Origin: Trissonchulus latispiculum
Taxonomy: Eukaryota; Nematoda; Enoplea; Enoplida; Ironidae
Direction: 5' to 3'
Assembly (NCBI GenBank): GCA_030248195.1
Contig: JASAND010015839.1
Coordinates: 1 to 64,000 of the forward strand
Length of the DNA: 64,000 nucleotides
The translations under genes were made by a program, and so were the position numbers. The notes under the pieces were generated by a model. That model was not told the origin of the DNA. It searched no databases and worked only from the letters and a program-made list of their open reading frames with translations. Shown here in pieces: positions 12,216-34,301 of this stretch (positions within the stretch are counted from its first letter, which is position 1; each line of letters begins with the position of its first letter).

Positions 12216-15200
12216 ATGCCTGAAGTATCAGGAAGAGACTCCTTGAGCTTGTCTGCTGGTAAGTTTTTGTTTGACTTGACACCATAGGATAATGTTTGTA
12301 CATTTCAAAGAGCTTGAGACTATATGCTACTTCCAGATATGATGTTAAATCTGAAAAATGCATCCAAAATGGTCTCCAAAATTATTACAGCGGCGAGCGA
12401 TTTTACTCCATACCTGAACGGTGGAATGAGGGTCTATTATAGGTTATCTTCCACATTTCCTGATATGAAACTGATGTCAAGTGTATGCCTGTTTACCCCA
12501 AGTAGCCAACAGCGGTCAAACTTTTGAACCGTTTCTCTTTTGAAGAGCAAACTGCATAATCTTTTACTACAGAGCCTAGAGACTGGGAAAATTTAGGGGC
12601 AAATGCCAAGTGTTGAGGTACTGATACTAGTGGGAGAGAGGAATTTAAGAAAACCAGCGAAAAGGTAGTGCTAAGCTTCTATTTTCTAAATTATTTTCTA
12701 GATTTTGTTTCAGGTTCAACCTGCCCACCAGCAGATCCCGCGAAACTGAGAGTCTATTCCATGCGCTTTTGTCCGTATGCTGATCGTGCTCTAATTTCGC
12801 TGATGGTGAAAGATATACCGTAAGAGCCTCGTCTGGTTAAGTTTGCTAGGAATCGGTTGCAACAGGTGGCCAAAATTAATGCAAACTTTTTATCGGCAAC
12901 AATTATATACAACAATTAATTAAACAACACTAAATTTGGAAATTTTTCTAGATATCTTTTGAAAACTACCCAGCGTTTTGGAAAAAAATGCTGTAACCGC
13001 CTTGGGCGACCGTGCATTTTATTTGTGTCAATTAACTAATAAAGCTCATTTGAGTAGAGACACGGAAACAGACGCGCTGTACAATTGAAACCAGAGCATT
13101 AGAGAGAGAAGGGAAGTGGGAAGTTCAGCTTTTCACTCAAGATCGCTCTCTCCCATGCGGTGATCGAACCACGGCCCTTCCCACCTCGAGGCAGACCTAA
13201 AAAAACACCACCGAGTCTTCAGCTGAACTCCCATATCAGGCTTATCAATATTTCCACGTCTGCTTTCGTTTCGGTATACATTAATAGGTATGCCTGCATA
13301 TCATCCAAGGTAGTTGAACGGAATGCCCGATTTTTGGAAAGATGGTCAATTTGTTTTAAATTAATGTGATTTTCTGCCAGTTCAAATGTCATGTATCTGA
13401 TGTTTCTGTTGCATTCTCTTGCATCAAGTTTTTCAGGCATGAAATTGTGAACCTTGATTTGAAACAGAAGCCTGAGTGGTATTTTGCCAAAAATCCCATC
13501 GGAAAAGTACCAACGGTTGAATATAATGGTGAGATTGTTTATGAGAGCTTGATCGTTCCTGAATACTTAGACAGAAAATTCCCCGATAAGAAACCACTAC
13601 TACCTGAAGATGCTTACAAACGTGCTCAACAGCAGATGATATTGGAAAGACTCAGCTCAGTAAGCAAGTCTACATTTCTATACAAGACTACGTAAACTCT
13701 ATACACTTAAACAAAAGATTGTCAAATTTTCCAATTTAATTAATTAATTAATGCTAATTATAAGTGGTGTCTTCTATGGCAATGAAATCCTCATTTTGTC
13801 TACCGTAATGAGGTACAGTTTTATACTTACTTCTTGTAAAATCTAAGTTAATTTCCCAGTCCAGTCAAATAAGCCAGTCGTCATAAAACGTTTGAGCTTT
13901 ACTGTATCCTTGTTAGACCAATGACCATTCACCGCTGCGTTACTAAAAGGTGGGTTTTGACAATGCCGTTTGTAAGAAACTGGTCACTGCAAAGATTGTA
14001 AGGGCATATTCTACTGATAAATATGTTTCAAGCTACATTGACAGGGAAGTAAGGGAAGTAGGCACAGGAAAGATTGATAAGTCACAGTAAGCTGCTAGTT
14101 GTTGAACTATTTTTGATGTAAATCTTGCTTATTTGTTCGTTTTAGCTATTTCCGGCGATTTATCCTCTGTTCAGGAAGCCTGATGATCCCGATCAGCTGG
14201 CCAAAGTCAAGGACGCCCTCAAATTAAGCTGTGATCTCCTGACTGACAATTTCTATGGAGGTACAGTAAACGGGAGGAAAATTAAAAAGGGGATGAGCGG
14301 GTGAGGTAAGGACACCCTTTTGCTAAAGTGGTGAACTCTGGTTTAGGAAAGCTATGTTTTAGATAGCCCTCTTTAAGCTTCCCAAGCAAATGCATGATTG
14401 AGAGCTAAAAAATGCCGGTTCTGGCACAGGAATTTGCCCTCAGGACGTTTGCACAGATATTGGGAGACTCCTCATGGTATTAACCGTTTCGGCCACCGCC
14501 ACAGAGCCTCATCAGACGGCTAGGCAACCGTTACGGTTTTTTATTTTCTTTATTTTTTCAACGCACAACACATATTACATTCATCAGATACAAGACTAAA
14601 CGCATCAGATTTATTAGTTAACCCAACAATAAAAAATTTCCCATTGTGAAAAAGTCTAATGGTACCACCTTTCATTTTCCACATAATTCCACTGTAAATT
14701 TCTAACTCTAAACATGCACTGGAGTAGACCTTTCTCAACTTTTCGTACAAAGCTTCCAGGTCTACTTCATATCCAAGATGATGAGATACAACCAAATTAC
14801 AAACAGTGTGTTCTTTTACCGATAGTTTCAAAATTTTACTCAAGTCAGTGATGCAAGTATTAGCATCTTCTTCAGATTTAGCTCCCAGACATAGGAAGCT
14901 TCCAGTGGTAAATAGCAAAAATGTGCTGGGTTTCAGAGTAAGAATAGCCCCACTAAATCGACTAGGGTTATAAGCTGCAGCCGGAATGGTACGTAAGTCA
15001 AGTTTTGAGTTAAATTTGCCTTTCAATACCAAATTGACAATCTTCATAGCCTCTACTCTGACACGACTGCAGAGATGGATAGTGCTTATGAATTCGTAAT
15101 TTATCAACAAATTGTTTTACAATAGAATCATTCTTTTCACTCCTTTTTCTCAAATAGTCTACAATTTCATCAAAACTCCAACCTCCCGACCTTTTTATTA

Positions 15201-18200
15201 AAAAATAAATACAATATTCACCACATACAATAAGTCCTGTAAACCATGATAATTAAATTTATCAATTTTATATGCTTCTTTACATTCTTCGATAGGATCC
15301 AACCCATAGCTATCAAAATACTCTGTATATTGACCAAAATACATTGCGATCCAGTGTCGTCCAGGAGCAACTGCGGGATCAGTGTTGAGAACCAAGCATG
15401 CCGGTCTAGCTTTTACTACAGGTAATTGATCACTCGGAAATACCCCCAGGAAGCATCTTTTTACCAAAGGATCCCTTTTTAAAGTTTCAGCAATCTCTAG
15501 ACTATTCATATTGCGTAGTCAAAGAATGGAGTCCGATTCTGATCGATGGATATTAAGTTATCAAATTCTCCATATATGATAATTTCCACCCCTTGTGGGT
15601 TTGAGTTGAGTGGTTCCTTAAGTTGCATATATAGAGATAGATCACCTTCTCTAATTAACTCCAATGCTCCCCCATCCACACTATCTGCTGTCAAATCAAA
15701 TACAAAGACTGTGTTTCCCTTTTTATAGTCATCATATTAAATATCGATCCCTCTATCACTTTTAGCTAAATTGATCCCTTCAAACAGATACATGTAAGGA
15801 ATAGTGTACTGGAACTTGTTCCAGTTCATTTTCATAGGATGCTTAGGAATGTATTCATCTCCACACTTTAGGGATAATTCACTAATGTTACAGTTTTCAA
15901 ACTGTAGCGGATGCTTAGTAAAAGAACCATTGAATGCTTCGGAATCGACCACAACCATGACTACTCTTCTAGGAAGTTGACCAGAAAATATTGAATTTTC
16001 CACTATTGTTTGAGACTTTGGTGCAATATGTCTAGTTACCATTTTGATTCGTCTAACAGGATATTTTTCAGTATTGTTGCTTATTAAAATCTTTTCGATA
16101 GCCAAACTTAATGATTCTTGAGGCTTCACCTTCCATACATGCCATTTAACATCTTCCACCTTCACTTTATATTCTGTACCATCACTCATTAACAGAAACT
16201 TGTCCACGTTTCTATGTAGCTCAATTGTTAGATCAGTATCACTTAACATATATCTGTCTTGTTTGAAAAGGTCGCAGTGTAATGGAGCCACCAATTCAAC
16301 GCCTTTGTTTGTCATAAAGGGTTTGCCTCGCCATTTCATTGCACCACTTGTAATATCATTAAAATTGCCTACAGCATCTTTATAAAACATTGCAAGTTGT
16401 TGGTGATTAGACTTTGCATCCCATCCATAGCTAAGCAAGACCTCTAGATAAGCCTTGTAAGCATACAGCGGTCCACTATTTTCAATCTCCTTATCACTGA
16501 GTTTTACAATAACTCGTTCAAACAGGGTAGATCCAAGTAGGTTGATTGGAGAAACAATAACATTACTCTTGTCTACAGTTCCATCAGCCAACTTTGGGTA
16601 AGCCAAATCCTTTCCATCTTTAGTGACAATCTTAAGTTTCATGTAGAGATAATTTTTATTTAAATCCAACATGTAGCTATCTTTAGGGATATGAATTCTG
16701 TATGGTCCACTATCTGTAACAGGATTCTGAGGATAATATTCAGCCCAATACCCCTTTTCTACAGCAACCTGAGTTGGTGGGAGGGTAAACAGGTCCAGTT
16801 CACTTTTGAAGCCTGGATAGGACTGTGCATCAACTTGTTTAGCCATGTCCAAAAACGTCTGAATTTGTTACTTTACGACGTTTCTTTAGCCTTTTTATGT
16901 TCTTTTTAGCAGGTCTATAGCCAATGCCTTCTCCTTCTTGCTGTAAGTCTTCCCCAATGTACGTCCAAGAGCTTGTCTGCCACGTTTCTTTAACGAGCTT
17001 CTTATGTCCTTTTTCTCATTTAGATTTCACTACCAGTTCTTAGAGCCTCTTTACCAACGTGAACACCCACCTTTCTAACTGTAGGCCAAATTGCGCGGAA
17101 TAATCCCTTGAAGAAACTTCCAATACCTTCTCCTCTTTGATAGGGATGACCTGCATATGTGGGAAGTGCACCACCAGTTTGTAGTAAGGCATCTTCCCAT
17201 GTCTTAATGTTTTCTGGATAATATAGAGTCCTCATGGTCGCAGCTTTCTAAAGTGTAGCTTTAGGTATATCTTACCATAGGAAAAGTTTACAGGCTCCCC
17301 TGCGTCATCGTTTATATTGATTTCAACACTTTCAAACTCCTTCTTTAGTACAGGTACATAATGAGGGTTATGATATTCTCGATCAATGCATTCGCCATGC
17401 TCTGTTGAAGTGTTGACAACACGCAGCAGTGGAGCTATTGCATTTCCAATCACTTGAGGAGCCACTAGATCACAGTATACATACATTGAGTAAAAACCAG
17501 CCTTCATATCTGGTTCGCTTCCAGCAACAAGAACCTTTTCCTTTTTGTTTACATGAGTTGGAGACTCTCGCTCAATTATACCTTGAGGATCAAAGCTTTC
17601 ACCGTTTTTAAAACCTAAGATGTATTGTAGCCGCTTACTCATGTTTAGGGCAACAATGTCAAGTGATACTCCTCGTTCTCTTGCAAAAATGATGTGCACT
17701 CGATGAGTATACTGGTCAAATTCCACTTTGATATCAGGGGGATTGCCATCCCGATTTGTCATTGTAGCTAGCGTAGCATTTATTGTTTCACATAATTCAG
17801 TAATGGATGCATAATATTTTAATGGCAAGGATTTGCTTTTCGATGTTCCATGACTGAATGATATTTGAATTTCTGAATCTTCGTCTTCTGAAAAGGTATT
17901 CCCTGTTACGGGATACATAAATTCAACTAAGGCAACTTCCCATTCACCTTCTAAATCTATGCGATGAGGTAGCTTTACTCTAAAATCATTTAGTGTATTG
18001 GTGGACTAATATTTAGTATTACTTGGTAGTTGTAGGCATTTATCTGGATATCTTAGCCACTTTACTAGAAATTCTGTTTTACCTCTTCGTCGTCGTCTTT
18101 TTATGACCTTCTCCACCCAATAGCTGTCAGGTTTAGCTACCGATTGCAATTCAGGTTCATAGAAACCGCCTTGTACTGGTTCATCTTGTAAATCAACAAG

Positions 18201-21200
18201 GTGATACATTGCAGGAAATGAATTTGTTGTAGTTTTCACAATTTTAAACAATTCCTCTGACCAATTTGGTAAATATCCTTTATCAAAAATGCCTTTTGCC
18301 TTGCGTATTCTCACAATATCTCCATCTTGCAGCTTTGCATTTGCAAACGGTTGTTTACCATACAATTTGTGGTAAACTGCATGATGGGGTTACAGGATCA
18401 GAGGCTTCTATAGGGCTCTTTCCAATACTGGAATGCTTAGTGTTGTTATAAGCATCAACAAAATGCTGCAACACATCTAGATATCTGTAGTTTCTGGTTT
18501 TGGTAAAATGCTTCCATAGCTTAGTCTTAATAGTCCTGTTGAATCGTTCAACAATACTACATTTTATGTCAGGATTGTTACAAGTGTAGTAGCGAATATT
18601 GTTTTCCTTGAGAAGCTGCTGAAACTGTCTATTTTGAAATTCCTTTCCCCTATCAGACTGAAGCTTTTCAGGACTCCTTTCAGACTGTAGGATGCGCTGA
18701 AATGCTTTGTAAATATAGTAAATATTGTAAATATATTTTCGATTTAGTTGGTACAACCCATGCAAACTTTAAAAATACATCAATGCAGGTGAGCAGGAAT
18801 TTATGACCATCACTTTCGTCGGATATTCTTGACATGTCAGCTAGGTCAACTTGCCAAAGCTTATCAACACCGTCTACAAAGTACCTTCTTCTAGAATAGT
18901 TGCGACGAATAGGTTTATGCAGAGTATAGGTATGCTGTTTCTTTAACCAGTCTTTGAATATATCAAAAGTGATTCCTGCATGTTTGGTTTTCACAAAGTT
19001 GTATAGCTTTAATGGACCGGAATATGCAACAGGGCTTGTAGGTGAATAATAGTAGTAGGCTAAAGTGTCCTCCATTTTATTTTCTTTAAAACCAAGCCAG
19101 TTCCAGTTTGAAGTGTTTGAGGTAGAGCGTCAATTCGTTGGGCTGCTGGTCTTCTTGGTGTAACAGGCTCTTTTATGTACTGCCATCTGGTAGGATTTCC
19201 AACAAATTCGCGAGGAACGTTACTACTACGTAAGGCTTCTGCCAAAAGTTCCCAACCAATGGCGGGACTTTTAGTTGGTCTATTTCTCACAAAATCATGA
19301 ACAAGATCAACAATTCGAGAATCTTTTGCTTCTCTACCTTTGTAAGAAATGTCACCTCTTTCGTTGACCTTAAAGTCTGGGATGCTTCGTAAATGCGTAA
19401 TCAGTTTTTCACCAGTTGGTTGAAGGTTTTTTGGTAGCGTAGCAATTATGGGATCGATTTGTTCATATTCAGAATGCTGAGAAGTGGTTTGGTGCTACTT
19501 TATTTGAATTTCTTGTCCCTTGTCTTTTAGCAAACGTCTTCTATAGTCCTTTTGTCTGTAAAGTGCCAATTTGACATCGCTATGGTATTTTCGCTTACGC
19601 ATTGTTCTTTCCATGTCCAAGTCAGCTTCTTTCATATGCTGCTCAAAGTAATCTGGTCGAACCAGTATAGAGTATTCCATTATCGTTTGAGTACAAGATC
19701 AGTAACTAGACCACCAACAACACCGAGTAACGGAGCAAGCAAAGCAGGTAAGAATCCTCCTTGTTCGACAATTAACTTCTTTTTAGATTGAATACTCTTT
19801 TGTTTATCCCTCAATTGACGTAAGACTTTCTTGTGTCGCTTCAAACGGCGTAAATCTTCTTCAGGAAGCATAACATTGCCAGATAGTACATTTTCAATAC
19901 AGTCACATATGGTTTTTATTAACTCTGGATTTGAGTTTTCAATAATGCCACGCCTCTGCTTTAGATTAGACTTACAGAGGACTTTTAAGTAGTCTACGTG
20001 CTTTTCAAATCGTTTCGCCATAGTGAATTAGTGGATTAGTAGATTATTTTCAATATATTCTAATCGTTTTTATGTACTTTTTAGTTTATAGATTCTATTA
20101 GGCTCGTTGGGAAATATCGTTGATCGTAGTCTGAAATCATCTGGAGTGTTTTGATCCAAGTCAATTAGCAGATAGCCATGAGGTTTAAGGGTAGCATGAT
20201 TATATGCTTTCATGAACCCATCAACTTTACCAGGAAACATTTGCTTAGCCAGGTTGATTGGAGTTAGTTTATCAGCAGGATTCTTCATTAATATTATATA
20301 CTGAGCATTTATTCTGCTAGTTCTCTCTCTTTTTATCATAGAAAATATCTTGAGTGATATGGACCACGCTACACGACCAATGATGACATCCTCGAGAAAA
20401 CAGTTCAATTAGTTTGGAATTTCTCTGTACTTCAGTCATTAAATCATGAAGTACTATTAACGTAGGTTTACCGGTTTTTAATTCATCCAAGCTGGGTGTT
20501 CCATGATGAAACTCAACTTTTGAAAGATTATCATAGACATTTTGCCATTCACTGTAACACCATAGGATCCGCTGTGGAGGGGGATTAATCATTTCATTCG
20601 CAAAATGTATAAGTTTAGATACAAATGTTGTTTTACCTGCTTTTGTAGGCGCAGCTACAATACAGGTAAAGGGGTGTTGAAATTTAAGAAACGGTGTAGC
20701 AATCATAACTGTTTCAACCCTGCCAAAGGTCTCATCATGTGACTTTAACGGCTGTCACTGCAGTTTTTTCAACCTTTTATTAATTCACAAGCACAACATC
20801 ACACATAACGCAATCAATACATAATATTATAACTGTTAGTTTTCATTTACAATTTCTTCTCTAATCTTCATTAGGATTTCACCAAGTTTATTCTTGCCTA
20901 CCCACTGAGATGCATCACTGATGGTGGGTTCACTTATATCCATTCCATTAGCCCAATATGAATCATATTTCGTTGCTTCTGTGATGATATCCTTTCCAGT
21001 GTCCTTCAAGAGCTTCTCAATTTTAGGGTGTTGACGTATCTTTTCTTTCACTGCGAACGACATTACGCTGTCTGCAATTTGAAGCCAGCGCTCTTCGTTA
21101 TATCCTTCAACTGATTTACCCAATGTTTAGCGACTGATGGTAACCAAGTAGCCATAATCTTATCATAAGTTTTAAAATCGTTGAAATACCTAGCTTTTGC

Positions 21201-24200
21201 AGCTTGGTAATATTGTTCCACGTTGCGGTATACCACACATTGGATAGTGAAAGGTGCTCTATAAAAGTTGCTGAATGGATGCCACCCAGAGTAGAATAAA
21301 GTAATCATTTTACCATCCACTCCTTTAATTCGCAAAGTATTCTTTGTAGGCTCAGAGAGTGTTGTCGACTCTGGTTTGTGAGATTCCTTTTTGTGCTTTT
21401 GAAGAGATCGTAGCGTTTTGAATTCTTCTCCACAACATGTTTTAGCTTTTGAATGTTCCTTTATAACATGACGTCTCCTTTCAATTTTATCAGAAAAAGT
21501 CTTCGCACACTGAGTACACTTGAAGAGAGCCATTTTAAAAACACGACCGCACTCGACAAAAGCAAAAGTATAAAATGAAAGGCGTTTTATTAACTCAGAG
21601 TCAGAATAATATGATAAGTCATCACTGCGCAATATTACGCAATAAGCCAGCGTTTCTACACAGCAGTAATAGTTAGTTTTATCGTTTCACTTCATAAATT
21701 TTTAACAAATCTTCTCTAGTTATATGAATGGGTCCAATGCTAGCAAACATTACTTGCTGCTCGTCCACCATACAAAGCTGAACGTCAAATTTCTCAGCAA
21801 TAAAGGGACACAATGAGCTATCAGTCTCTGCTAATGGACAACCTTTCCCATTGAAACACTGCCACAAAAACTATTGAATCTTGTGAAACTGTTTAAGTGG
21901 ATATACTCGTCTAATTGCATCCTGTTTGATTCCAATCATTCCATCAGGTAACAGTTCCACTGTAATTGGATTGAACGTTGAATTCTTTCCCCTTTGTTCA
22001 TTTAAATGTCCTTTCTGTGTGCATACTATTATTAAAGTTGTTATTGTAACAACAAAAATTGTTCCCAGCAGAGCATACAAAGCATAAACGGTGCACTTAC
22101 TTTGAAATAGTTGTTGTTTTTCCATTCTAAACTCCATTGTGACAGATATAAACTTTTATCTGTGCTCTTGTTGTTCGTTTACTGCTCATTTATCTGTGCT
22201 TTTTATTCCTGCTGCGCCAGCAGGTCTCTTAAATTTGCTCTGCCCCGGGGACTCACATACATTTTGCTTGATAAAGATACTTCTGTTCGTAATTGCGTGT
22301 AAACAATGGTTTAAGATAGGGATAGCATGATTTGTGTGTGCAATCTTTCCTTATAATTCCAAAGAACTTCTTGTTTCGATTCATGTAGATATTACGCATA
22401 TATACGTTTGCTCGTGCATTAATGGATTCGGAAAAGACTATTCTTTGCTCTGATTGATGACTCATAGTTAAAGTTAAACTTCTTGATCTTAACAGCTCAC
22501 CAGCGATTTCTCAAATACACGGAACTTACAGAAACAAATGCTAGCATGTATCTAATACTTAATTGTTTGAACTTTATTTGCGACATAAAAGTTAAATTCA
22601 TCAACTTTAGGAAAAATCTTCCGACAATGTTTTGCACGTATATTTTCTGTAGTAAGCAAGTAAGAGCTCCTTATAAAATAATTAGCTGCGCAGCAGGTTT
22701 ACAATTACTTAAATGTCCGACCAGCGGAAACTGAACCTTTTGCATAAAATCTTGCTTGTTAACTCAAAGCTTGCATGCAAGGCAGGCTGCTTACATATAT
22801 TGACTTCCATACGACAGGCTGTTAAAGTCTCCTAGTTCCTGCTTTTGTCTACATAAACCTGTTTTAGATAGAAATATTCTAGTCAGCGTGGTCGAGTGGG
22901 CCAAGGCGCTGTATTCAAGTCTGGGCCAAGGCGCTGTATTCAAGTCTAGATTAATCCAAGTGGTGGTTCGAATCCAAGTTCGGAATATTTCTTTATATAA
23001 TATCTTGAATAATATAGAAGTTTTTTAAAGATTGATTATCCCGTTGCCATGACAACAAAAGTTGTGCAATATTGTGAAATTGATGAGTCATCAAACACCT
23101 AAAAGTTGGCTTATTACAAAGATAGATCATCCTGTTGCTATGACAACAAACATTGCACAATATTACTCAATGCTGACAAGAAAAGTTTCAGTTTCGAAAG
23201 ACATAAAAAGGTTAGTCATTTGTGTTTCTTGCAAGCTAGAAGTATGTCGCGTTTTCAGTGCTCGCTCTGTGCTTAGCTGTTTTCACAGCGATATAATATG
23301 CTAAGACATGTGCATGAAGTGCATGAGAAGCGTTGTTTATATGCTTGTGGAAGTTGTGGAAAATCATTTGCTCGCCGAAACAATTTAAAGGAACATGAAC
23401 TAACACATTCCTGTGTTAGAGTATTTGCACAGCCTCAAGAAAAGATCAAGCCTATCAGTGAATTTATCTTTATTCCCAAAGATCATGGTCGATATCATAA
23501 TGTCAAGACATTTACTCTGGAATCAGATTACCTGTGGATTGATTTATGGGAAATGTATAAGAAGTTGAAGAAAAGCTTGAAAGCTACATTATCAACGATA
23601 CTACAGGACCTCAGCTGTTTTAAGTTTGATTTGATTTCACGGATTACATTTGAAAAGGCAACTGATCCTGACGAGACTATTACCTGCTATTTTCATAGCA
23701 GTGTACATCGCATTGTTAATGGACGTGAAGTCAGTGGAATGATATTGCAATCATTCAAAAATTTAAACAAGAAGATGGAGGACTTTATGGAGCGTGGTAG
23801 TGGATGGGTTGTCAAATCAATCGATAATTTGGACTTGCGTGTCTCAAAATATGAACCTGTCCGTGGATGTTCTTATTTACCTTTGCCTTCTAAATTACAA
23901 AACAAGAAGGCTATTGTTAATGTTAAAAATGCTGACAACAAATGCTTTATGTGGAGCATTTTGGCAGCACTTTATCCCCCTGTCACCAATCCTCAGCGAG
24001 TTAATTATTATCTTGATTACGAAAACGAACTTGTTTTTGATGGTATTGATTTCCCAGTTAAGGTGGAAGATGTTCCAAAATTTGAAGAATTGAACAATTT
24101 ATCAATTAATGTCTGTGGGTACGACGATAAATTGACAATTTTACATATTTCAAAGAAGAACGCTGATCGGAAAATCAGCCTGTTGTTACTGAAAAATCAA

Positions 24201-27200
24201 CACTATTGTTGGCTAAAAGACCCAGGCCGTTTCTTTCATACAGAAACAAAGAACGAACATCGGCGATTTCAGTGTCACTGCTGTCTATGTATGGTTAACA
24301 AAAGGGAAAAGAGAGATAAGCATATGGAACGATGCGAAAATCCTGATATGGAGTGCATTGAAATGCCCGAAGAAAGGTGGTTGTACTTTAAAAATTTTCA
24401 CAAGATGCAGCGACAACAGTATATTATTTATGCAGACTTTGAATGCATTTTGGAGAAGATTGTTGGCTGTGAACAGAACCTATGATACACAGAAACTGGG
24501 TCGAATTGATTTGTACAGAGGAGAAGGGACTGTGGAGAGGTTTTTAGATACAATAATTAAGTGGGGAAGAGACTATCAGGAACTGTATGATCAGCAAAAG
24601 TCTCCTCAAATGACTCAACAGGATTGGTGGCATTACTGGGGAACTAGGAAATGTAATATATGTGGTGATGAGTTGAGTGAAGAAAGAGTATTGGACCACT
24701 GTCACTTTTGTGGTAGCTATAGAGGAGCTGCTCATAATGAGTGCAACCTTAGCTATAGACTATCACGTGATGTGGTGGTGGTATTTCACAACCTTCGACG
24801 TTATGACAGACACCTCATTCTCCAAAAACTGGGAGTTGCTATGAAGAACATTAAAGGAAGCAACATCTCAGTGATACCAAAAGGCTTTGACGACTGTCTT
24901 ACATTCTCCCTGGATCTTAAACATAAAAAGAAGAAGTGGTGGCACATTAAATTTATCGATAGTTATCAGTTTATGGCGGCTACCTTGCCTCAACTTACAA
25001 AAAACCTACGAGATAAAGGTGAAGAAAAGTTTACCCTTACATCAACCCATTACAAACCCGAGCAACTACCTTACCTTTTGAGAAAAGGTGTATACCCTTA
25101 CGATTATATGGACTCTTGGCAAAGATTTAATAAAGTCACACTACCACCGAAAGAACAGTTTACCAGTACTCTAACTGGTGAAGAAATTTCAGACGAGGAC
25201 TATCAACATGCTCAGACTGTATGGAACGAGTTCAAAATGAAAACATTAAAAGACTACCACGATCTATACTTGGAAACTGATGTTCTCTTACTTGGAGACG
25301 TTTTTGAAAACTTTAGATACTTTTGTCTATACAACTATCAATTGGATCCTGCTCATTATTTTACATCACCATCATTTTCTTGGGATGCTTGCTTAAAGAT
25401 GACTGGAGTAGAGCTGGAACTACTACAGGATCCTGACATGTACACGTTTCTCGAAAGGGGGATTCGTGGAGGAGTATCAGTGATTAGTCATAGATACGCT
25501 AAAGCAAATAATCCCTTAGTACCTGATTATGACTCAACTATACCGACGACCTGGATTACCTACTTGGATGCAAATAATTTATATGGATGGACCATGGCAG
25601 AGCCACTACCTTTAAAAGACTTTAAATGGATTTATGCTCCGATAGAAGTTGAGACTATACCTGATGATTCACATACTGGTTACATCATGGAAGTAGATTT
25701 GGAGTATCCTGACTCGTTACATGAATTACACAACGATTATCCTTTAGCCGTTGAAAAGATGCAAATTACTGACGAAATATTATCTCCTTATTCTCGAGAG
25801 GCAAAAGAAAAATTGAAAATTAAGAGTGGTAAAATTAGGAAGCTTGTCCCCAATTTATATGAGAAAGAGCACTATATTGTGCACTATCGAAATCTCAAGC
25901 TCTATTTAGAGCTGGGATTAAAACTAACAAAAATACATCGAACTCTTGCGTTTACTCAGTCAAAATGGATGGCTCCTTATATCCTATTCAATACCGAACA
26001 AAGGAAGAAGGCAAAGGACAACTTTGAAAAGGATCTATTTAAACTATTTAAACAGTGTGTTTGGGAAGACAATGGAGAACGTGCGCAACTACATCGATAT
26101 TAAACTTGTTATCGATGAAAAGAAGGTAACGAAACTGACAAGGAAGAACGAATACAGTGGATTTAAGGTGATTGGTGAAAGTCTGTGGGCCGTAAAAATA
26201 AAAAGACCAACAGTGGAGCTGTGTAAACCCATCTACGTGGGGTTTACCGTATTGGACCTATCGAAATGGCTCATGTACAGTTTCCACTACAAATATGTGA
26301 AACATAAATATGGGTCCTCCGCTACCCTATTAATGACTGACACCGACAGCCTACTGTATCCAGGCTAATGATATATATGAAGATATGGTAAAGGATGCTC
26401 ACTTATTTGATGGTAGTGAGACTACCCTAAAGAACATAAATGCTATGACGTCACAAACAAGAAGGTAATGGGAAAGATGAAGGATGAGATGGCTGGAAGG
26501 ACAATTTGGGAATTTGTTGGATTGAGGTCGAAAATGTATAGTATATTAGATACGGAAGGAAAGGAAAAGAAGAGAGCGAAAGGTGTAAAAAAGGATGTAG
26601 TATCGAGACGAATCAGACACCAGCTGTACAAAGATACCCTATTTGATGGGTCTCAACATAAACATTTAATGAGAATTATAAGAAGGGATGGTGGAGAAAT
26701 TAACAGCATTGTACAGAATAAGACTAGCCTTAGTGCTTTTGACGATAAACGTTACATTTTAAATGATGGTTATTGTAGTTTTGCGTATGGTAATTGTAAT
26801 GTTATGCAGTAAATTGTTGTACAGTAAATTGTTGTAAATAAACAAAAAAGAAAAAACCGTAACGGTTGCCTAGCCGTCTGATGAGGCTCTGTGGCGGGGG
26901 CCGAAATGGTAATTAATCATAAGCTTAGGAGCCCCAAATGTCTGTGCAAACGTCCTGAGGGCAAATTCCTGTGCCAGAACCGGCATTTTTTAGCTACTGC
27001 CAATCTTGAAATCAAATCTCAGACCATAGGCTATTGTTGATTATGGTATTATTACAGCTAGACTACAGACTTCAATTGAAAAAGTTTAATGAAGAACTAC
27101 CTGGACACTGCCCTGAAATGCTCAATTTCGGTTATACTTTAGATTTTTGTTTTAGGCAAGGAACCGGGCTACGCCGACTACATGCATTGGCCGATGTTGG

Positions 27201-27406
27201 TGCGAGCTCATGCCATGGATCAGATATATGGCGGAAAATTGGGCTTTTCCACGGATTTTCCTAAGTTGAAGGCCTATTTCGATCGCATGCTCAACGTTCC
27301 AACGATCGCTGCCACCACGCGCTCTGTGGAAGATCACATTGCTTTCATGAAATCCATGGCGACTGGCTATCCTGAGTATAATCTTGGAATCAGCGCAAAA
27401 GCCTGA
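12216..27406 (+). CDS. Omega-class glutathione S-transferase (copy B), five exons, Polinton in intron 4
   Basis: Exons: 12216-12258, 12714-12819, 13437-13659, 14146-14260, 27156-27406, with GT-AG borders and the same phases as copy A. The protein begins MPEVSGRDSLSLSA, has the catalytic RFCPYADR in exon 2, the glutathione-site motif NPIGKVPTVEYNG in exon 3 and GYADYMHWPMLVRAHAMDQ in exon 5, ending in KA. All exons are open, so the coding capacity is intact. Intron 4 is 12.9 kb because a Polinton (14403-26995) sits in it. Expression therefore needs splicing across the whole element, whose left block runs antisense to the gene. Expected role: cytosolic glutathione-dependent thioltransferase/dehydroascorbate reductase. 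Confidence 0.9.
14403..14556 (+). repeat. Polinton left terminal inverted repeat
   Basis: It pairs with 26838-26995. The outer ~58 bases and the block from GCCACAGAGCCTCATCAGACG to GTTACGGTTTTTT are nearly identical to the other end; ~40 bases between them have diverged. The inner edge overlaps the stop codon of the TBP-like gene. Confidence 0.9.
14550..15047 (-). CDS. TATA-box-binding-protein-like (TBP-fold) protein
   Basis: It has about 165 aa from the ATG at 15047 (MKIVNLV); the frame is also open further upstream. Two imperfect direct repeats are visible, as in the TBP saddle. Repeat 1 has KLDLRTIPAAAYNPSRFSGA, then a FTTGSFLCLGAKSEEDA block. Repeat 2 has VDLEALYEKL, YSGIMWKM, then FHNGKFFIVGLTNKSDA. 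The order (LD-L-T-I, YNP-RF, F-x-x-G-x-x-x-x-x-GAKSEE) is that of eukaryotic/archaeal TBP. The frame has no stop. It is the last gene of the leftward block, ending inside the terminal repeat and overlapping the protease remnant upstream. A role in recruiting or redirecting host RNA polymerase to the element's promoters is inferred. DNA-contacting phenylalanines cannot be assigned with certainty. Confidence 0.8.
   Translation of the reverse strand: MKIVNLVLKGKFNSKLDLRTIPAAAYNPSRFSGAILTLKPSTFLLFTTGSFLCLGAKSEEDANTCITDLSKILKLSVKEHTVCNLVVSHHLGYEVDLEALYEKLRKVYSSACLELEIYSGIMWKMKGGTIRLFHNGKFFIVGLTNKSDAFSLVSDECNMCCALKK
15010..15509 (-). pseudogene. Adenain-like cysteine protease (PRO), frameshifted
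   Basis: The ATG at 15509 overlaps the capsid gene's stop as ATGA. The first ~90 codons include RHWIAMYFGQYTEYFDSYG, carrying the catalytic His and the acidic residue of the adenovirus protease family. The frame then shifts at about 15225-15236. The part after the shift still shows a CGEYC motif with the candidate nucleophile Cys and continues open to about 15010. One frameshift therefore separates the His from the Cys half. In Polintons this enzyme is expected to mature capsid proteins. The alternative, a functional shortened protease, is unlikely because the nucleophile is lost. Confidence 0.8.
15506..16846 (-). pseudogene. Polinton major capsid protein (double jelly-roll), one nonsense codon
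   Basis: The open frame from ATG 16846 (MAKQVDAQSYPGFKSELDLF) runs 369 codons to TAA at 15737-15739. The same frame then continues 76 more codons to TGA at 15506-15508, and the continuation carries the family's conserved C-terminal segment (IIIYGEFDNLISIDQNR). The family match is to Polinton major capsid proteins, the group often labelled F54H12.2-like in databases. The total of ~446 codons fits that family, so a single base change split an otherwise complete gene. It overlaps the protease start (ATGA) and the preceding small virion gene, typical of tightly packed viral operons. Confidence 0.88.
16839..17235 (-). pseudogene. Small basic virion protein, frameshifted
   Basis: The ATG at 17235 overlaps the penton stop (ATGA). 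The first 71 residues include GEGIGSFFKGLFRAIWPTVR, a glycine/amphipathic segment common to Polinton minor virion proteins and reminiscent of adenovirus membrane-lytic or core proteins. After the stop at 17020 the other two frames show basic stretches (KKDIRSSLKKRGRQALGR; then KKNIKRLKKRR with DVFGHG just before a stop at 16839). So two frameshifts break a ~130-codon gene. Assignment to a specific adenovirus counterpart is uncertain. Confidence 0.6.
17232..18005 (-). pseudogene. Penton-like minor capsid protein (single jelly-roll), start lost
   Basis: An open frame of ~257 codons reads from 18005 to TGA at 17232, with EGEWEVALVEFMYPVTGNTF near the start and HNPHYVPVLKKEFESVEINI, then a GEPVNF...LHFRKLRP C-terminus. 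These match the Polinton minor capsid (penton) family. No in-frame ATG precedes the conserved N-terminus. Upstream the same frame passes a TAG (18006-18008) and the penton-like string LQLPSNTKY, then runs directly into the integrase chromodomain. A deletion has evidently removed the end of the integrase and the start of this gene. Penton proteins occupy the five-fold vertices of the virion. Confidence 0.75.
18006..19075 (-). pseudogene. Retroviral-type integrase (DD35E) with chromodomain, frameshifted
   Basis: The ATG is at 19075 (MEDTLAYYYYSPTSP). The N-terminal helix-rich part is followed by VDKLWQVDLADMSRISDE (first catalytic Asp). LQSDRGKEF supplies the second Asp and IVERFNRTIK the Glu, with 34 residues between, i.e. 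DD35E. The C-terminus has a chromodomain core (YWVEKVIKRRRRRGKTEF, KWLRYPDK). Two defects are seen. A short imperfect tandem duplication (TATATTTACAA units, about 18705-18740) shifts the frame between the first and second Asp. A further frame change near 18355-18365 separates the catalytic core from the chromodomain part. The chromodomain is also cut short by the junction with the penton gene. This enzyme would insert the element and make the target duplication. Confidence 0.85.
19060..19680 (-). pseudogene. Conserved Polinton protein of unknown function, one nonsense codon
   Basis: The ATG at 19680 overlaps the upstream gene's stop as TAATG (MEYSILVRPDYFEQHMKE). The frame meets TAG at 19495-19497, then continues without shift to a TAG at 19060-19062, about 207 codons in all. 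The second half has IVDLVHDFVRNRP, GWELLAEALRSSNVPREFVG and NPTRWQYI, a pattern I recognise from Polinton gene sets but without a known function. It precedes the integrase, overlapping by a few bases. A single base change accounts for the break. Confidence 0.65.
19680..20021 (-). CDS. Small Polinton protein with hydrophobic C-terminus
   Basis: An intact 113-codon gene (MAKRFEKHVDYLKVLCKS...). The first ~85 residues are basic and helix-prone, with VLSGNVMLPEEDLRRLKRHK. The last ~25 are hydrophobic (GGFLPALLAPLLGVVGGL), a likely membrane-interacting helix. The layout is typical of a conserved small Polinton protein and suggests a virion or membrane-penetration role by analogy only. One of the few genes in the element with no lesion. 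The stop and the next start overlap (TAATG), indicating coupled packing. Confidence 0.65.
   Translation of the reverse strand: MAKRFEKHVDYLKVLCKSNLKQRRGIIENSNPELIKTICDCIENVLSGNVMLPEEDLRRLKRHKKVLRQLRDKQKSIQSKKKLIVEQGGFLPALLAPLLGVVGGLVTDLVLKR
20070..20706 (-). pseudogene. FtsK/HerA-type DNA packaging ATPase, frameshifted
   Basis: The ATG at 20706 begins MIATPFLKFQHPFTCIVAAP, with Walker A APTKAGKTTF near residue 20. The Walker B region is TLIVLHDLM, where the usual first Asp of the DD pair is His. A CHHWSCSVVHITQD segment follows, like the sensor region of this family. At about 20316-20335 (a short A/GA run) the frame shifts. The second part (RINAQYIILMKNPADK, INLAKQMFPGKVDGFMKAYN) continues to TAA at 20070. 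The protein belongs to the A32-like packaging ATPases of Polintons and large DNA viruses and would pump DNA into capsids. Confidence 0.85.
20836..21533 (-). pseudogene. C2H2 zinc finger fused to NADAR (YbiA-like) domain, one frameshift
   Basis: From the ATG at 21533 (MALFKCTQCAKTF): a C2H2 finger (C-x2-C...H-x4-H), then a CCGEEF...HKKESH second zinc-binding-like motif, a ~20-residue linker, and a NADAR domain. NADAR features are LFYSGWHPFSNFYRAPF, YRNVEQYYQAAKARYFND, AK-H, then, in the shifted frame, EERWLQIADSVMSFAVKEK, YDSYWANG and GKNKLGEILMKIREE at the C-terminus. One frameshift lies at about 21116-21126, just after the AKH motif. NADAR proteins are ADP-ribose-related glycosidases; bacterial members remove ADP-ribose from guanine. 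Counteracting host or competitor ADP-ribosylation is an inference. It lies between the ATPase and the membrane-protein gene. Confidence 0.85.
21679..22137 (-). pseudogene. Single-pass membrane protein, one in-frame stop
   Basis: The ATG at 22137 (MEFRMEKQQLFQSK) is followed by a hydrophobic segment VYALYALLGTIFVVTITTLI, then a polar domain. TAG at 21871-21873 interrupts the frame, which continues 64 codons with several Cys (WQCFNGKGCPL, SSLCPFIAEKF) to a stop at 21679. The topology suggests an N-terminal anchor with a C-terminal Cys-containing ectodomain. I do not recognise the family. It is the first gene of the leftward block, next to the control region. It could be a host-derived or envelope-like accessory. 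Confidence 0.5.
22882..22983 (+). tRNA. tRNA-Leu-like pol III unit with internal 25 bp duplication
   Basis: GTCAGCGTGGTCGAGTGG matches the start and A-box of eukaryotic tRNA-Leu. TTCAAGT looks like a CAA anticodon loop and GGTTCGAATCC is a perfect B-box. A 25-base unit covering the D-loop and anticodon region is duplicated in tandem (22898-22922, 22923-22947). The acceptor and T stems pair poorly, so it is probably not a working tRNA. A 10-base inverted repeat (AGAAATATTC / GAATATTTCT) flanks it. The first downstream T-run that could end pol III transcription is at about 23022. Confidence 0.5.
23043..23056 (+). promoter_or_regulatory. RFX X-box-like site 1
   Basis: GTTGCCATGACAAC differs at one position from the palindromic X-box GTTGCCATGGCAAC bound by RFX factors. 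It lies about 190 bases upstream of the polymerase ATG. Confidence 0.5.
23134..23147 (+). promoter_or_regulatory. RFX X-box-like site 2
   Basis: GTTGCTATGACAAC, the equivalent position in the second copy of the ~60 bp tandem repeat, about 100 bases upstream of the polymerase ATG. Confidence 0.45.
23244..26812 (+). pseudogene. Protein-primed family-B DNA polymerase of the Polinton, multiply broken
   Basis: Likely start ATG 23244 (MSRFQCSLCA), then a TAG at 23274-23276, after which the same frame continues. Two N-terminal C2H2 fingers (second: CGSCGKSFARRNNLKEHELTH minus its last residue) are followed by a Cys-rich knot. Exonuclease motifs: YADFEC (ExoI), FHNLRRYDRHLI (ExoII), YLETDVLLLGD (ExoIII). 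A CNICGDEL...DHCHFCG insertion resembles endonuclease VII zinc modules. Polymerase motifs: YLDANNLYGWTMAEPLP (A), NSVFGKTMEN (B), TDTDSL (C). C-terminal end: FDDKRYILNDGYCSFAYG. Breaks: a frameshift plus apparent small deletion at about 24445-24490, then frameshifts at about 26040-26070, 26350-26370 and 26430-26465. It would replicate the element. Confidence 0.92.
26838..26995 (-). repeat. Polinton right terminal inverted repeat
   Basis: Reverse complement of the left repeat, ending ATTTTTTAGCT at 26995. It begins about 25 bases after the polymerase stop codon. Confidence 0.9.
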
Positions 27407-31583: not shown

Positions 31584-31743
31584 TTATTCGCTTTTCAACA
31601 TTAGCTCACGTAGGTAGTACATTTTAAATCCTTGTTATTTTAGCTAATCATATGATTTAGGTAGTTTAAAGTAGTGATTCCCTTGCGGACATTTAATTTG
31701 CCAATATTGAATTGAAAGCATCAGTTCCCTTAGCATTCTAAAC

Positions 31744-33091
31744 TAAAGTCTGACACAAAAATGTGTGTACAAAATCTGTAAGGCCTCCAGTGAACTTAAT
31801 ATACGTCGTAACTCCATAAAACCATATATTTTCGGAATCCTTGCAGCGAGACAAATATTTTTATAAAATTTAAATTTTTTTAAAATTTCAAAAACTTTAA
31901 AATATCGGTTTTTCGGGGAATTTTTTCGGACCGTTCAAGCTATTCAGCTCATTCTTTCAGAAAAATCTTCCCGTCCGAAGACGCATCGATTGATACAAGA
32001 ACGAAAAAATCGGTTGAGAAATAAGCACTTTATTCAAAAATTTCGTTTTTCCATTTCCTTTGATGTTTGCCGCTTTTTGCAACTTTGACTGGTAATTACT
32101 CGCGACTCGCTCAACGGAAAATTTTTTCGATTAGATTTTCAAGACCGCCTGGGCGTCCGCTTTCACCTGATATGTGTGGTATTTCAAATTTTGAAAGTCG
32201 ATTTTTTGGAAAAATACCACTTTTTGACCCAAAATTTCGGCATAGCGACTCTAGCAAGAGTGAGTAAAAATAACATAATCATAAAATTCAAGCTGAGCTG
32301 AATCCAACGATATAAAGCTTTTGTTGCTACGACTTATATTGCGCCAGCAATGAATTTTTAAACAATATCCCTTATTTCAGCTGGTTTTTGGCTCCCTTTG
32401 ATGTTGCCGCCGCGATTTGACGGAAGCAGTGTAAGCTAGCAAAACCAGCTGAAATTAGGGATATTGTTTAAAAATTCATTGCTGGCGTAATATAAGTCGT
32501 AGCAACAAAAGCTCTTTATATCGTTGAATTCAGCTCAGCTTGAGTTTTATGATTATATTATTTTTACTCACTTTTGCTAGAGTCGCTATGCCGAAATTTT
32601 GGGTCAAAAAGTGGTATTTTTCCAAAAAATTGACTTTCAAAATTTGAAATAGCACATATATTAAAATGTGAAAGCGGGCGCCTAGGCGGTCCTGAAAATC
32701 TAATCGAAAAATTTTTCCGTTGAGCGAGTCGCGAGTAATAACCAGTCAAATTTGCAAAAAGCGGCAAACATCAAAGGAAATGGAAAAACGAAATTTTGGA
32801 ATAAAATGCATATTTCTCAACCGATTTTTTTCGTTCTTGTGTCAATCCATGCGTCTTCGGACGGGAAATTTCTTCCGAAAGAATGAGCTGAATAGCTTGA
32901 ACGGTCCGAAAAAATTCCCCGAAAAACCGATATTTTAAAATTTTTGAAATTTTAAAAAATTTTAAATTTTATAAAAATGTTTGTCTCGCTGCAAGGATTC
33001 CGAAAATATATGGTTTTATGGAGTTACGACGTATATTGAGTTCACTGGAGGCCTTACAGATTTTGTACACACATTTTTGTGTCAGACTTTA
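31744..33091. mobile_element. 1.35 kb palindromic foldback element
   Basis: Arms about 31744-32387 and 32441-33091 are close reverse complements, with a ~53-base loop. Ends read TAAAGTCTGACACAAAAATGTG. A repeated ~67-codon frame in each arm (with SRFFGKIPLFDPKFRHSDSS or a close variant) is an arm-symmetry artefact with no recognisable family. A transcript across it would form a >600 bp hairpin. No clear target duplication seen. Confidence 0.8.
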
Positions 33092-34301
33092 ATTTGTGAA
33101 CGAACTGTCATATCAAATACATGACATTTATTTTCAACATTTACCAGACATTCAAAAGACTGATTTTACTAAGCTCTCTTCAGACCTTGTGGCTAAAAGC
33201 CCGTTTTCCTATTTTGAAGTCTGGACTTATCGTTTTGTGAAATCAAATCATCAACCAGTTACTGAGTTTCACGAGCCCTAAAGTTTCTGAAATCGGCTAG
33301 CGGAAAGAAACATTGTAGTCATGAAACAAAACGTGACTTGAGAAGCATCGCTAAGAACACTAAGTTTCTGCGTTGATGTCAACTACATCCAACCATATAT
33401 TCGCTGGAATTTATGTAGATAGGTTGGGGATAGTGTTGCTGACGGTAACAACACTCATATTGTACTGAATGATTGCTTACATTGTCAAATGTACCAGTCC
33501 ATGGCGAGTCATTGTGCACAAAAAAGGTTGCTGAAACGTTGGATGTTCTTTAACCACCATCTGAAAAAGCCAACACTGCCATATGATCCTTATAAATAGA
33601 AATATAAACCGGTGTAAAAGTGCTCTGTCGCCTTTACGCAAACTTCTGCGGATAAACAAGTTCGGTTGTTTGTTGTTATAATTGGCATTACACTTAACTT
33701 TTCGACGTTCTAACCAGCGTAGTTAGCAATATTTTGCAAGTTTGCATGACATCGCACCGATTCTATTTGTCGTTTTAAACCTGCTATCTGCTGCACGGAC
33801 CAAAACTTTATTGCCACTTAGAATGAACATGTTTGTAATGTTGTTCAGACAGTGAACCAGCAAGCTCCAGTAGCCACTCAAAAAGCAGCAGACGACCTAG
33901 AACATGTGCTTGTGCATAGTTTTCGACTGCTGCTGACACATGACATCCTTGTTGCAACTTGGTTGAGTTGTTTTTGACCAACCTTTTGGGAGTTTCCTGG
34001 CTAACGCTTTGCACCTTCGGATGATGATCATCACCGTGTGATGACTAATGCAGCAAACAACAACAACATGATTGGCCTATTTTTAGTTTTTATCGATAGT
34101 TTGATCGTCCGAAAAGTTTCCTTAGTTACAAGTTACAGTTGCCTTCGCTCAGAACGAAATATTGTTTGTTCGAATATAACCGAGTAAACCGGGGTATAGA
34201 AGTTAAGTACCACCCTATTGCAAAGAATACGTAAAACGTTTGGCTAATATTTTTACATTATAATGTTATAGAAATCAGCCTTGTCAAGCTGAGCTGCTAC
34301 C
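33092..34301. other. Upstream region of dehydrogenase copy A
   Basis: AT-rich intergenic DNA; no gene, RNA or repeat recognised. It presumably holds the promoter of the next gene. Confidence 0.35.

What the first reader, a model, noticed from the sequence alone, without database searches (positions are those of the whole stretch)
20836..21533. Zinc finger-NADAR fusion carried by a Polinton
Seen: two zinc-binding motifs joined to a complete NADAR signature (PFSNFYRAPF, EQYYQAAK, YDSYWANG, GKNKLGEILM). NADAR enzymes are glycosidases tied to ADP-ribose chemistry; bacterial members reverse guanine ADP-ribosylation. Inferred: a DNA-targeted de-ADP-ribosylase protecting element DNA from host or rival DNA-ADP-ribosylation, or acting on PARP signalling. 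This is not part of the standard Polinton core set, and the fusion could be an undescribed counter-defence module.
Basis: partly seen in the sequence, partly recalled or inferred. Interest (0 to 1): 0.82.

Follow-up and report, generated by a model that had tools for sequence, protein, structure and literature searches.

The report
Zinc-finger NADAR gene of animal Polintons
A virus-like mobile element in an animal genome carries an enzyme gene of the kind that strips ADP-ribose from DNA and RNA bases, here joined to zinc fingers; this copy is broken, but intact relatives sit at the same spot in related elements, so it looks like a real working gene of these elements.

Summary
Confirmed, and broader than the finding says. 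Minus-strand 20836-21533 encodes two C2H2-like fingers joined to a NADAR domain (PF08719), split by one frame change near 21120. The mutation-tested catalytic positions of known NADARs are kept. It lies in a TIR-bounded Polinton (14403-26995), between a membrane-protein gene and the packaging ATPase. This copy is broken, but the gene is no chance insertion: in the same genome all 150 scored NADAR matches pass Pfam's cut-off; of 40 neighbourhoods read, 27 hold core Polinton genes and 6 carry the same finger-NADAR fusion, open and in the same order as far as read. Copies compared show purifying selection (dN/dS 0.08-0.17). Other Polinton types there have finger-less NADARs, often beside a TBP gene; the sampled Polinton NADARs group together. 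C2H2 fingers also sit on PolB and, in another type, on the ATPase. Best reading: a nucleic-acid-directed guanine-ADP-ribose hydrolase used by Polintons, probably against host ADP-ribosylation. The chemistry rests on homology; the counter-defence role is inferred. NADAR in mobile elements (algal Gypsy, oyster Tx1 LINE) and viruses is published; I found no report for Polintons or of this fusion in the open library searched.

The parts
20836..21126 (-). NADAR domain, C-terminal piece (96 aa), with equivalents of P. nicotianae W89 (21085-21087), E125 (20977-20979), D130 (20962-20964), W133 (20953-20955)
   Evidence: PF08719 E 4.5e-22; ungapped match over 67 residues to 8bau, the P. nicotianae NADAR-ADP-ribose complex (title)
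21063..21533 (-). N piece: two fingers, linker, first half of NADAR with E43 and K50 equivalents (21216-21218, 21195-21197); homology ends at about 21123
   Evidence: PF08719 E 6.7e-8, just under cut-off; zf-C2H2 E 4.3e-6; alignment
21453..21518 (-). zinc finger 1, C-x2-C-x12-H-x4-H
21378..21437 (-). zinc finger 2, CC-x12-H-x4-H variant
   Evidence: (zf-C2H2_6, E 2.2e-4, below cut-off); same variant in six open relatives
21110..21130 (-). frame change between the two NADAR pieces
14403..14562 (+). left terminal inverted repeat, begins AG
26831..26995 (-). right terminal inverted repeat
14550..15047 (-). TATA-binding-protein-like gene of the element, open frame
   Evidence: PF00352 E 1.3e-23; PDB TBP E 8.4e-15
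15198..15518 (-). adenovirus-type protease piece
   Evidence: PF00770 E 0.0037, below cut-off
15737..16867 (-). double jelly-roll major capsid piece
   Evidence: PF21738 E 1.4e-4, below cut-off
17232..18005 (-). probable minor capsid/penton gene (by position)
   Evidence: no family above cut-off; a match lies at the end of the same gene order in L102, L109, L110
18006..19129 (-). integrase pieces (rve, chromo), frame-broken
   Evidence: PF00665 E 5.2e-7, below cut-off; PF00385 E 4e-6, above cut-off
19680..20027 (-). small basic core-like protein (weak Adeno_PX match)
   Evidence: E 0.23; matched in L100, L102, L109, L110
20070..20754 (-). packaging ATPase, two frames
   Evidence: weak Adeno_IVa2 and Pox_A32 matches; match beside finger-NADAR in 6 of 6 loci
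21871..22155 (-). small membrane protein gene just 5' of NADAR
   Evidence: match in 6 of 6 finger-NADAR loci; no Pfam family
23244..26812 (+). PolB pieces with two N-terminal C2H2 fingers, the first interrupted by an in-frame stop
   Evidence: PF03175 E 6.7e-5, below cut-off; zf-C2H2 E 1.7e-4, below cut-off; reading

Best explanation
The locus is a frame-broken copy of an element-encoded enzyme gene shared by a family of Polintons in this animal genome. The enzyme is a YbiA-family NADAR with two N-terminal C2H2-type fingers. Shown here: domain family, conserved pocket residues, fixed place among element genes, purifying selection in the copies compared. Inferred from characterised NADARs: it hydrolyses the N-glycosidic bond between ADP-ribose and guanine in DNA or RNA. 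Inferred: the fingers bring it to nucleic acid, plausibly element DNA, as fingers also sit on the element's PolB and on the ATPase of a sister type; it thereby protects element replication, transcription or packaging from ADP-ribosylation by host enzymes.
For: Pfam and PDB matches; the C-piece model's only PDB match of useful probability is P. nicotianae NADAR (0.96, E 0.23). E43, K50, W89, E125, D130 and W133 of that enzyme (PMC11543638, passages) are kept in the window pieces. By pattern matching in 40 sampled genome NADARs the E43/K50 pair and D130 are kept in 40, E125 in 39 (D in one), W133 as W in 30, F in 9, Y in 1. Same gene order in open relatives. dN/dS 0.083 between two open copies (36 silent, 14 replacement changes, p 6e-15) and 0.167 and 0.153 between the window pieces and a close copy (20 against 14, p 9e-7); simple counts against site fractions. 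Finger pairs at the N-terminus of the two clear PolB frames seen (L109, L110) and at the same place in L100 and L101; a finger on the ATPase in 12 of 12 type II loci with an ATPase match. NADARs tested in two studies act on guanosine-ADP-ribose in DNA (PMC11125620) and RNA (PMC11833690) (passages).
Against: No activity, substrate or expression data. R79 and R93, which also bind ADP-ribose in the reference enzyme, are K and A here. NADARs outside DarT1 operons did not rescue well from DarT1 in E. coli although active in vitro, so in vitro activity need not be the biological role; E. coli YbiA is known for riboflavin intermediates. Finger 1 scores 22.6 and 24.4 bits in L110 and L109, just under the zf-C2H2 cut-off of 25.2, and AlphaFold did not model the fingers (pLDDT 44-55). 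The finger part changes somewhat faster than the enzyme part between subfamilies (dN 0.38-0.44 against 0.26-0.36). No host DNA-guanine ADP-ribosyltransferase was looked for. C2H2 fingers may bind protein.
Confidence: 0.5

Rival explanations
1. The NADAR removes ADP-ribose from proteins or destroys free ADP-ribose signals made by host enzymes; the fingers only place it in the nucleus or on a partner protein.
For: [quoted passage not shown]
Against: Tested NADARs act on base-linked ADP-ribose; fingers on PolB and ATPase, proteins that handle DNA, point to nucleic acid.
Confidence: 0.25
2. A metabolic or RNA-processing N-glycosidase kept for a routine step of the element's cycle, not for conflict with the host.
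For: TIGR02464 (riboflavin-intermediate N-glycosidase) matches both pieces, each below its cut-off; the authors of PMC12477816 suggest RNA processing for retrotransposon NADARs (passages).
Against: No riboflavin-pathway family appeared among the element frames scanned; fingers and recurrence across virus-like types fit nucleic-acid action better.
Confidence: 0.17
3. A host or retrotransposon NADAR that landed in one Polinton by chance (later insertion).
For: The genome also holds NADARs in long frames outside Polintons.
Against: Beside the membrane-protein and ATPase genes in 6 of 6 finger-NADAR loci, with open frames; the long-frame NADARs fall on the other side of a 99/97 branch.
Confidence: 0.03
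4. Catalytically idle NADAR fold reused as a finger-bearing DNA-binding regulator of element transcription.
For: Two fingers; the element also encodes a TBP-like protein.
Against: Pocket pattern kept in 40 of 40 genome NADARs, with one E-to-D change at the E125 place.
Confidence: 0.05

Closest known systems
Phytophthora nicotianae NADAR (PDB 8bau) and E. coli YbiA (2b3w)
   Same: YbiA-family NADAR, same pocket residues including the family-defining Glu
   Different: no zinc fingers in the matched chains; R79 and R93 differ here
DarT1-NADAR (DarTG1) antitoxin, BC4488 family
   Same: guanine-ADP-ribose hydrolase superfamily
   Different: Asp instead of Glu in the last strand and paired with a DarT toxin; here Glu, and no such gene among the neighbours scanned
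NADARs of Ectocarpus Gypsy Pol and Crassostrea gigas Tx1 LINE ORF1 (PMC12477816, passages)
   Same: YbiA-family NADAR carried by a eukaryotic mobile element
   Different: retrotransposons, NADAR inside Pol or ORF1; here a separate gene of a DNA-virus-like element, with C2H2 fingers
Viral NADARs (phages, NCLDV, nidoviruses, picorna- and hepe-like viruses; PMC9503650, passages)
   Same: NADAR in viruses, proposed to counter host ADP-ribose chemistry
   Different: 'Maverick', 'adintovir', 'virophage', 'transposon' and 'zinc finger' have 0 occurrences in that main text
Finger genes ('Ziftr') of some adintoviruses (PMC11071296, one passage)
   Same: zinc-finger protein in an adintovirus-type element
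   Different: 0 occurrences of NADAR or YbiA in that text

Membership tests
NADAR superfamily (PF08719) | profile match over the whole domain | tested here: met
   two pieces cover profile 10-162 of 163; open relatives L109, L110 match in one frame, E 1.8e-37 and 4.2e-37
NADAR, YbiA family | Glu in the last strand (Asp in BC4488, His in phage gp30.3) | tested here: met
   Glu at the E125 place; 39 of 40 genome loci
NADAR enzymes | hydrolysis of guanine-ADP-ribose | not testable with these tools
   needs an assay
C2H2 zinc finger | C-x2-4-C-x12-H-x3-5-H, finger 1 | tested here: met
   window: 27.3 bits over two stretches, cut-off 25.2; L110 22.6 and L109 24.4 bits, just under; cysteines and histidines kept
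C2H2 zinc finger | same, finger 2 | tested here: inconclusive
   CC-x12-H-x4-H; 21.6 of 25 bits; conserved in six relatives; model uninformative
Polinton/Maverick | TIRs with PolB, rve integrase, protease, ATPase and DJR capsid genes between them | tested here: met
   single matches are mostly weak, but the gene order recurs in genome copies
Polinton/Maverick | 6-bp target site duplication (recalled) | tested here: not met
   flanking six bases agree at 3 of 6 places, read; could be mutation or an old insertion
DarTG1 toxin-antitoxin | adjacent DarT-type ADP-ribosyltransferase | tested here: not met
   neighbours are membrane protein and ATPase; only the named frames were scanned

The most novel reading that the evidence does not exclude
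C2H2 fingers are a shared address tag of these Polintons: on PolB for replication, on the ATPase (type II) for packaging, and on NADAR (type I), so that a base-de-ADP-ribosylating enzyme travels with the element's own DNA. That would mean animal hosts use guanine ADP-ribosylation of DNA or RNA against virus-like elements, and NADAR is a dedicated, long-kept counter-defence.
Probability: 0.3. Interest if true: 0.92.

Novelty: new variant of a known kind. Interest (0 to 1): 0.72.

Why it matters
NADAR reversal of base ADP-ribosylation is shown for bacterial toxin-antitoxin systems, but the role of animal NADARs is stated to be unclear (PMC11125620, passages). A conserved, selected NADAR gene in several Polinton types of one animal gives a direct handle: it suggests that base ADP-ribosylation acts on virus-like DNA in animals, and offers natural enzymes with a possible built-in nucleic-acid-binding part to test it. 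It also enlarges the Polinton gene set of this host with NADAR and TBP.

Tried and rejected
The bare pieces found nothing at E 0.001 in the 5.8-billion protein set; the NADAR C piece, capsid, PolB and TBP pieces found nothing in viral contigs. In phage records the C piece matches 498 of 50,697 records, all under 60% identity, the N piece 36. A profile search gave 4599 NADARs; 0 of the 120 listed carry a finger-like motif. With an alignment, 306 loci in viral contigs encode a relative and the best 80 were kept: 0 of 80 with a finger-like motif before NADAR, and none with a match (E up to 0.01) to seven Polinton pieces. The later-insertion reading is rejected. Foldseek with the N-piece model gave 49 weak, meaningless hits. 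Rfam: no match in the window. Likeness of NADAR fingers to PolB fingers: against the PolB of L110, 0, 13, 0 and 1 of 2000 C/H-kept shuffles were as high for the NADARs of L110, L109, L100, L102; against the PolB of L109, 299, 47, 148 and 118 of 2000. So a common origin is possible, not shown. In one search the finger print-out for L100 and L101 came out empty because of the search pattern; their fingers are seen. In one search the Walker A flag fired nowhere because of its pattern; the motif GMTGSGKT was read by eye and the frames are those matched by the ATPase query. The PolB matches of L100 and L101 (44 residues) may rest on the fingers themselves, so only L109 and L110 count as clear PolB. 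dS between subfamilies was mostly saturated. Papers: NADAR+Polinton 0; NADAR+Maverick 15, DUF1768+zinc finger 1, Polinton+TATA-binding protein 3, Polinton+ADP-ribosyl 3, all by listing only, none judged relevant to NADAR in Polintons; NADAR domain+transpos 4, of which two were read in passages. No paper was read whole. The founding NADAR survey (de Souza and Aravind 2012, recalled) is not held.
Full report
What is in the window. Minus-strand 21533 down to 20836 reads a methionine start, two C2H2-like fingers, a linker and a NADAR domain, with one frame change near 21120. Pfam recognises NADAR in both pieces (E 6.7e-8, just under the cut-off, and 4.5e-22), which together cover profile positions 10-162 of 163, and C2H2 fingers in the N piece. 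NCBIfam's riboflavin N-glycosidase model and PHROG 1017 match both pieces. The C piece aligns without gaps to 8bau over 67 residues; 8bau is the P. nicotianae NADAR-ADP-ribose complex (title). Its chain numbers exceed the paper's by two (a tag, inferred from the exact fit); with that offset E43, K50, W89, E125, D130 and W133 of PMC11543638 (passages) fall on identical residues here, R79 and R93 on K and A. Of 21 columns invariant in the 120 listed homologues and lying in the homologous parts of the pieces, 18 are kept; the exceptions are Q for M in the first half and T and K for S and P of EASPYD.

The element. TIRs at 14403-14562 and 26831-26995 are 86% alike and begin AG, end CT. Between them lie a TBP-like gene, protease, capsid, probable minor capsid, integrase, core-like protein, ATPase, NADAR and membrane protein on the minus strand, and PolB on the plus strand. 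Several genes are frame-broken; the TBP frame is open. Two GST-like exon pairs stand in tandem, 6486-8093 and 13429-27390; the element lies between the two exons of the second. So it is a chromosomal insertion in an intron of a host gene. The host is taken to be an animal from its GST, dehydrogenase and ion-channel gene pieces and the element's kind; it was not identified. The six bases on either side agree at 3 of 6 places only.

Own genome. G000 has 733.8 Mb in 21,732 contigs. Of 2478 first-look candidates for PF08719, 150 were scored: all 150 exceed the family cut-off and 10 of 150 rows list an internal stop. With the C piece as query, 150 of 1543 candidates were scored, the window itself among them, at 52-100% identity; 12 of 150 rows list an internal stop, and 11 copies are 94-97% identical with open frames of 249-261 residues. 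Counts are lower bounds by the tool's own note.

Neighbourhoods. I read 40 of the 150 PF08719 loci: 20 picked across frame-length classes and the next 20 by rank. 27 of 40 have at least one core Polinton gene (tblastn E up to 1e-4 with the window's pieces) within about 3 kb. Type I (6 of 40: L100-L103, L109, L110) has the finger-NADAR fusion between the membrane protein and the ATPase in 6 of 6; core protein, integrase and minor capsid follow in the four whose stretch reaches that far, as in the window. Type II (15 of 40, defined by TBP) has NADAR without fingers; the order integrase, ATPase, NADAR, TBP, capsid, membrane protein is seen whole in 6 and in part in the others. Other loci have ATPase, or capsid and ATPase, beside a finger-less NADAR. 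Of the 13 without a core gene, 8 are long frames, or a piece of one, ending in NADAR (L104-L108, L118-L120), L098 groups with them in the tree, L111 has TBP, and L096, L123 and L131 are near copies of loci that do have Polinton genes.

Selection and descent. Two open type I genes (L100, L102) differ by 36 silent and 14 replacement changes (dN/dS 0.083, p 6e-15). The window pieces, kept apart, differ from L110 with ratios 0.167 and 0.153 (20 silent, 14 replacement, p 9e-7). Between subfamilies dS is mostly saturated; dN is 0.27-0.38 for the gene, 0.38-0.44 for the finger part and 0.26-0.36 for the enzyme part. The tree had 57 distinct rows: 30 from the 40 loci and 27 of the 120 listed proteins. 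The 26 rows that I class as Polinton (four of them by TBP or near-copy only: L096, L111, L123, L131) lie on one side of a 99/97 branch and the finger group is one clade (100/99); the long-frame NADARs are apart (99/92). The root is arbitrary and the tool warns of long branches. This fits one capture by Polintons in this lineage and one gain of fingers, but no other animal or eukaryote-virus NADAR could be included.

Mechanism. Shown: a conserved YbiA-type pocket, a recurrent place in the element, purifying selection in the copies compared. From the literature (passages only): NADARs hydrolyse guanine-ADP-ribose in DNA and RNA, and E. coli C7 NADAR was more active on RNA than T4 phage NADAR and YbiA, which its authors link to nucleic-acid binding. 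Inferred: the fingers supply such binding. Finger pairs begin the two clear PolB frames seen (L109, L110) and lie at the same place in L100 and L101; a finger begins the ATPase in 12 of 12 type II loci with an ATPase match. Both are DNA-handling proteins, which makes nucleic acid the likelier partner. What ADP-ribosylates the guanine is unknown; pierisin-1 of the cabbage butterfly shows that an animal can own such an enzyme (PMC11125620, PMC11833690, passages).

Novelty. NADAR in mobile elements is published for Ectocarpus Gypsy and oyster Tx1 LINE (PMC12477816, passages) and in many viruses (PMC9503650, passages). I found no mention in Polintons or adintoviruses, in an open-licence library only and by word search. 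Hence a new variant of a known kind, of high interest because it is recurrent, selected and tied to fingers.

Noticed in passing
14550-15047 (-): TBP-like gene (PF00352 E 1.3e-23, open frame) inside the Polinton; a TBP-like match lies near NADAR in 15 of 40 sampled loci of the genome.
   Followed up: partly
L105, L106, L107, L108, L118-L120: 676-731 aa frames with a C-terminal NADAR. Of three scanned, one (L105) has a 3'-5' exonuclease match, E 1.5e-4, just under cut-off; L106 and L108 have none. In L107 an integrase frame of Gypsy-like look lies upstream and a protein-kinase frame downstream; in L105 kinase frames lie on both sides. Perhaps a large LTR-type or other element with captured NADAR and kinase genes.
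   Followed up: partly
L093, L112-L117, L121, L122, L125, L126, L129: Packaging ATPase with an N-terminal C2H2 finger shortly before a Walker A motif read by eye, in 12 of 12 type II Polinton loci with an ATPase match.
   Followed up: partly
23244-23409 (+): PolB N-terminus carries two C2H2 fingers, the first interrupted by an in-frame stop in this copy; uninterrupted finger pairs in L109 and L110 PolB, and at the same place in L100 and L101.
   Followed up: partly
3891-4437 and 4939-5485: 547-base inverted repeat, 99% complementary, 501 bases between the arms: probably a young TIR element.
   Followed up: no
31740-33095: Long near-perfect palindrome in several nested arms, 94-96% complementary.
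   Followed up: no
6465-8109 and 13360-27406; 36639-37004 and 42956-43282: Tandem duplicated GST-like and short-chain-dehydrogenase-like host gene pieces.
   Followed up: no
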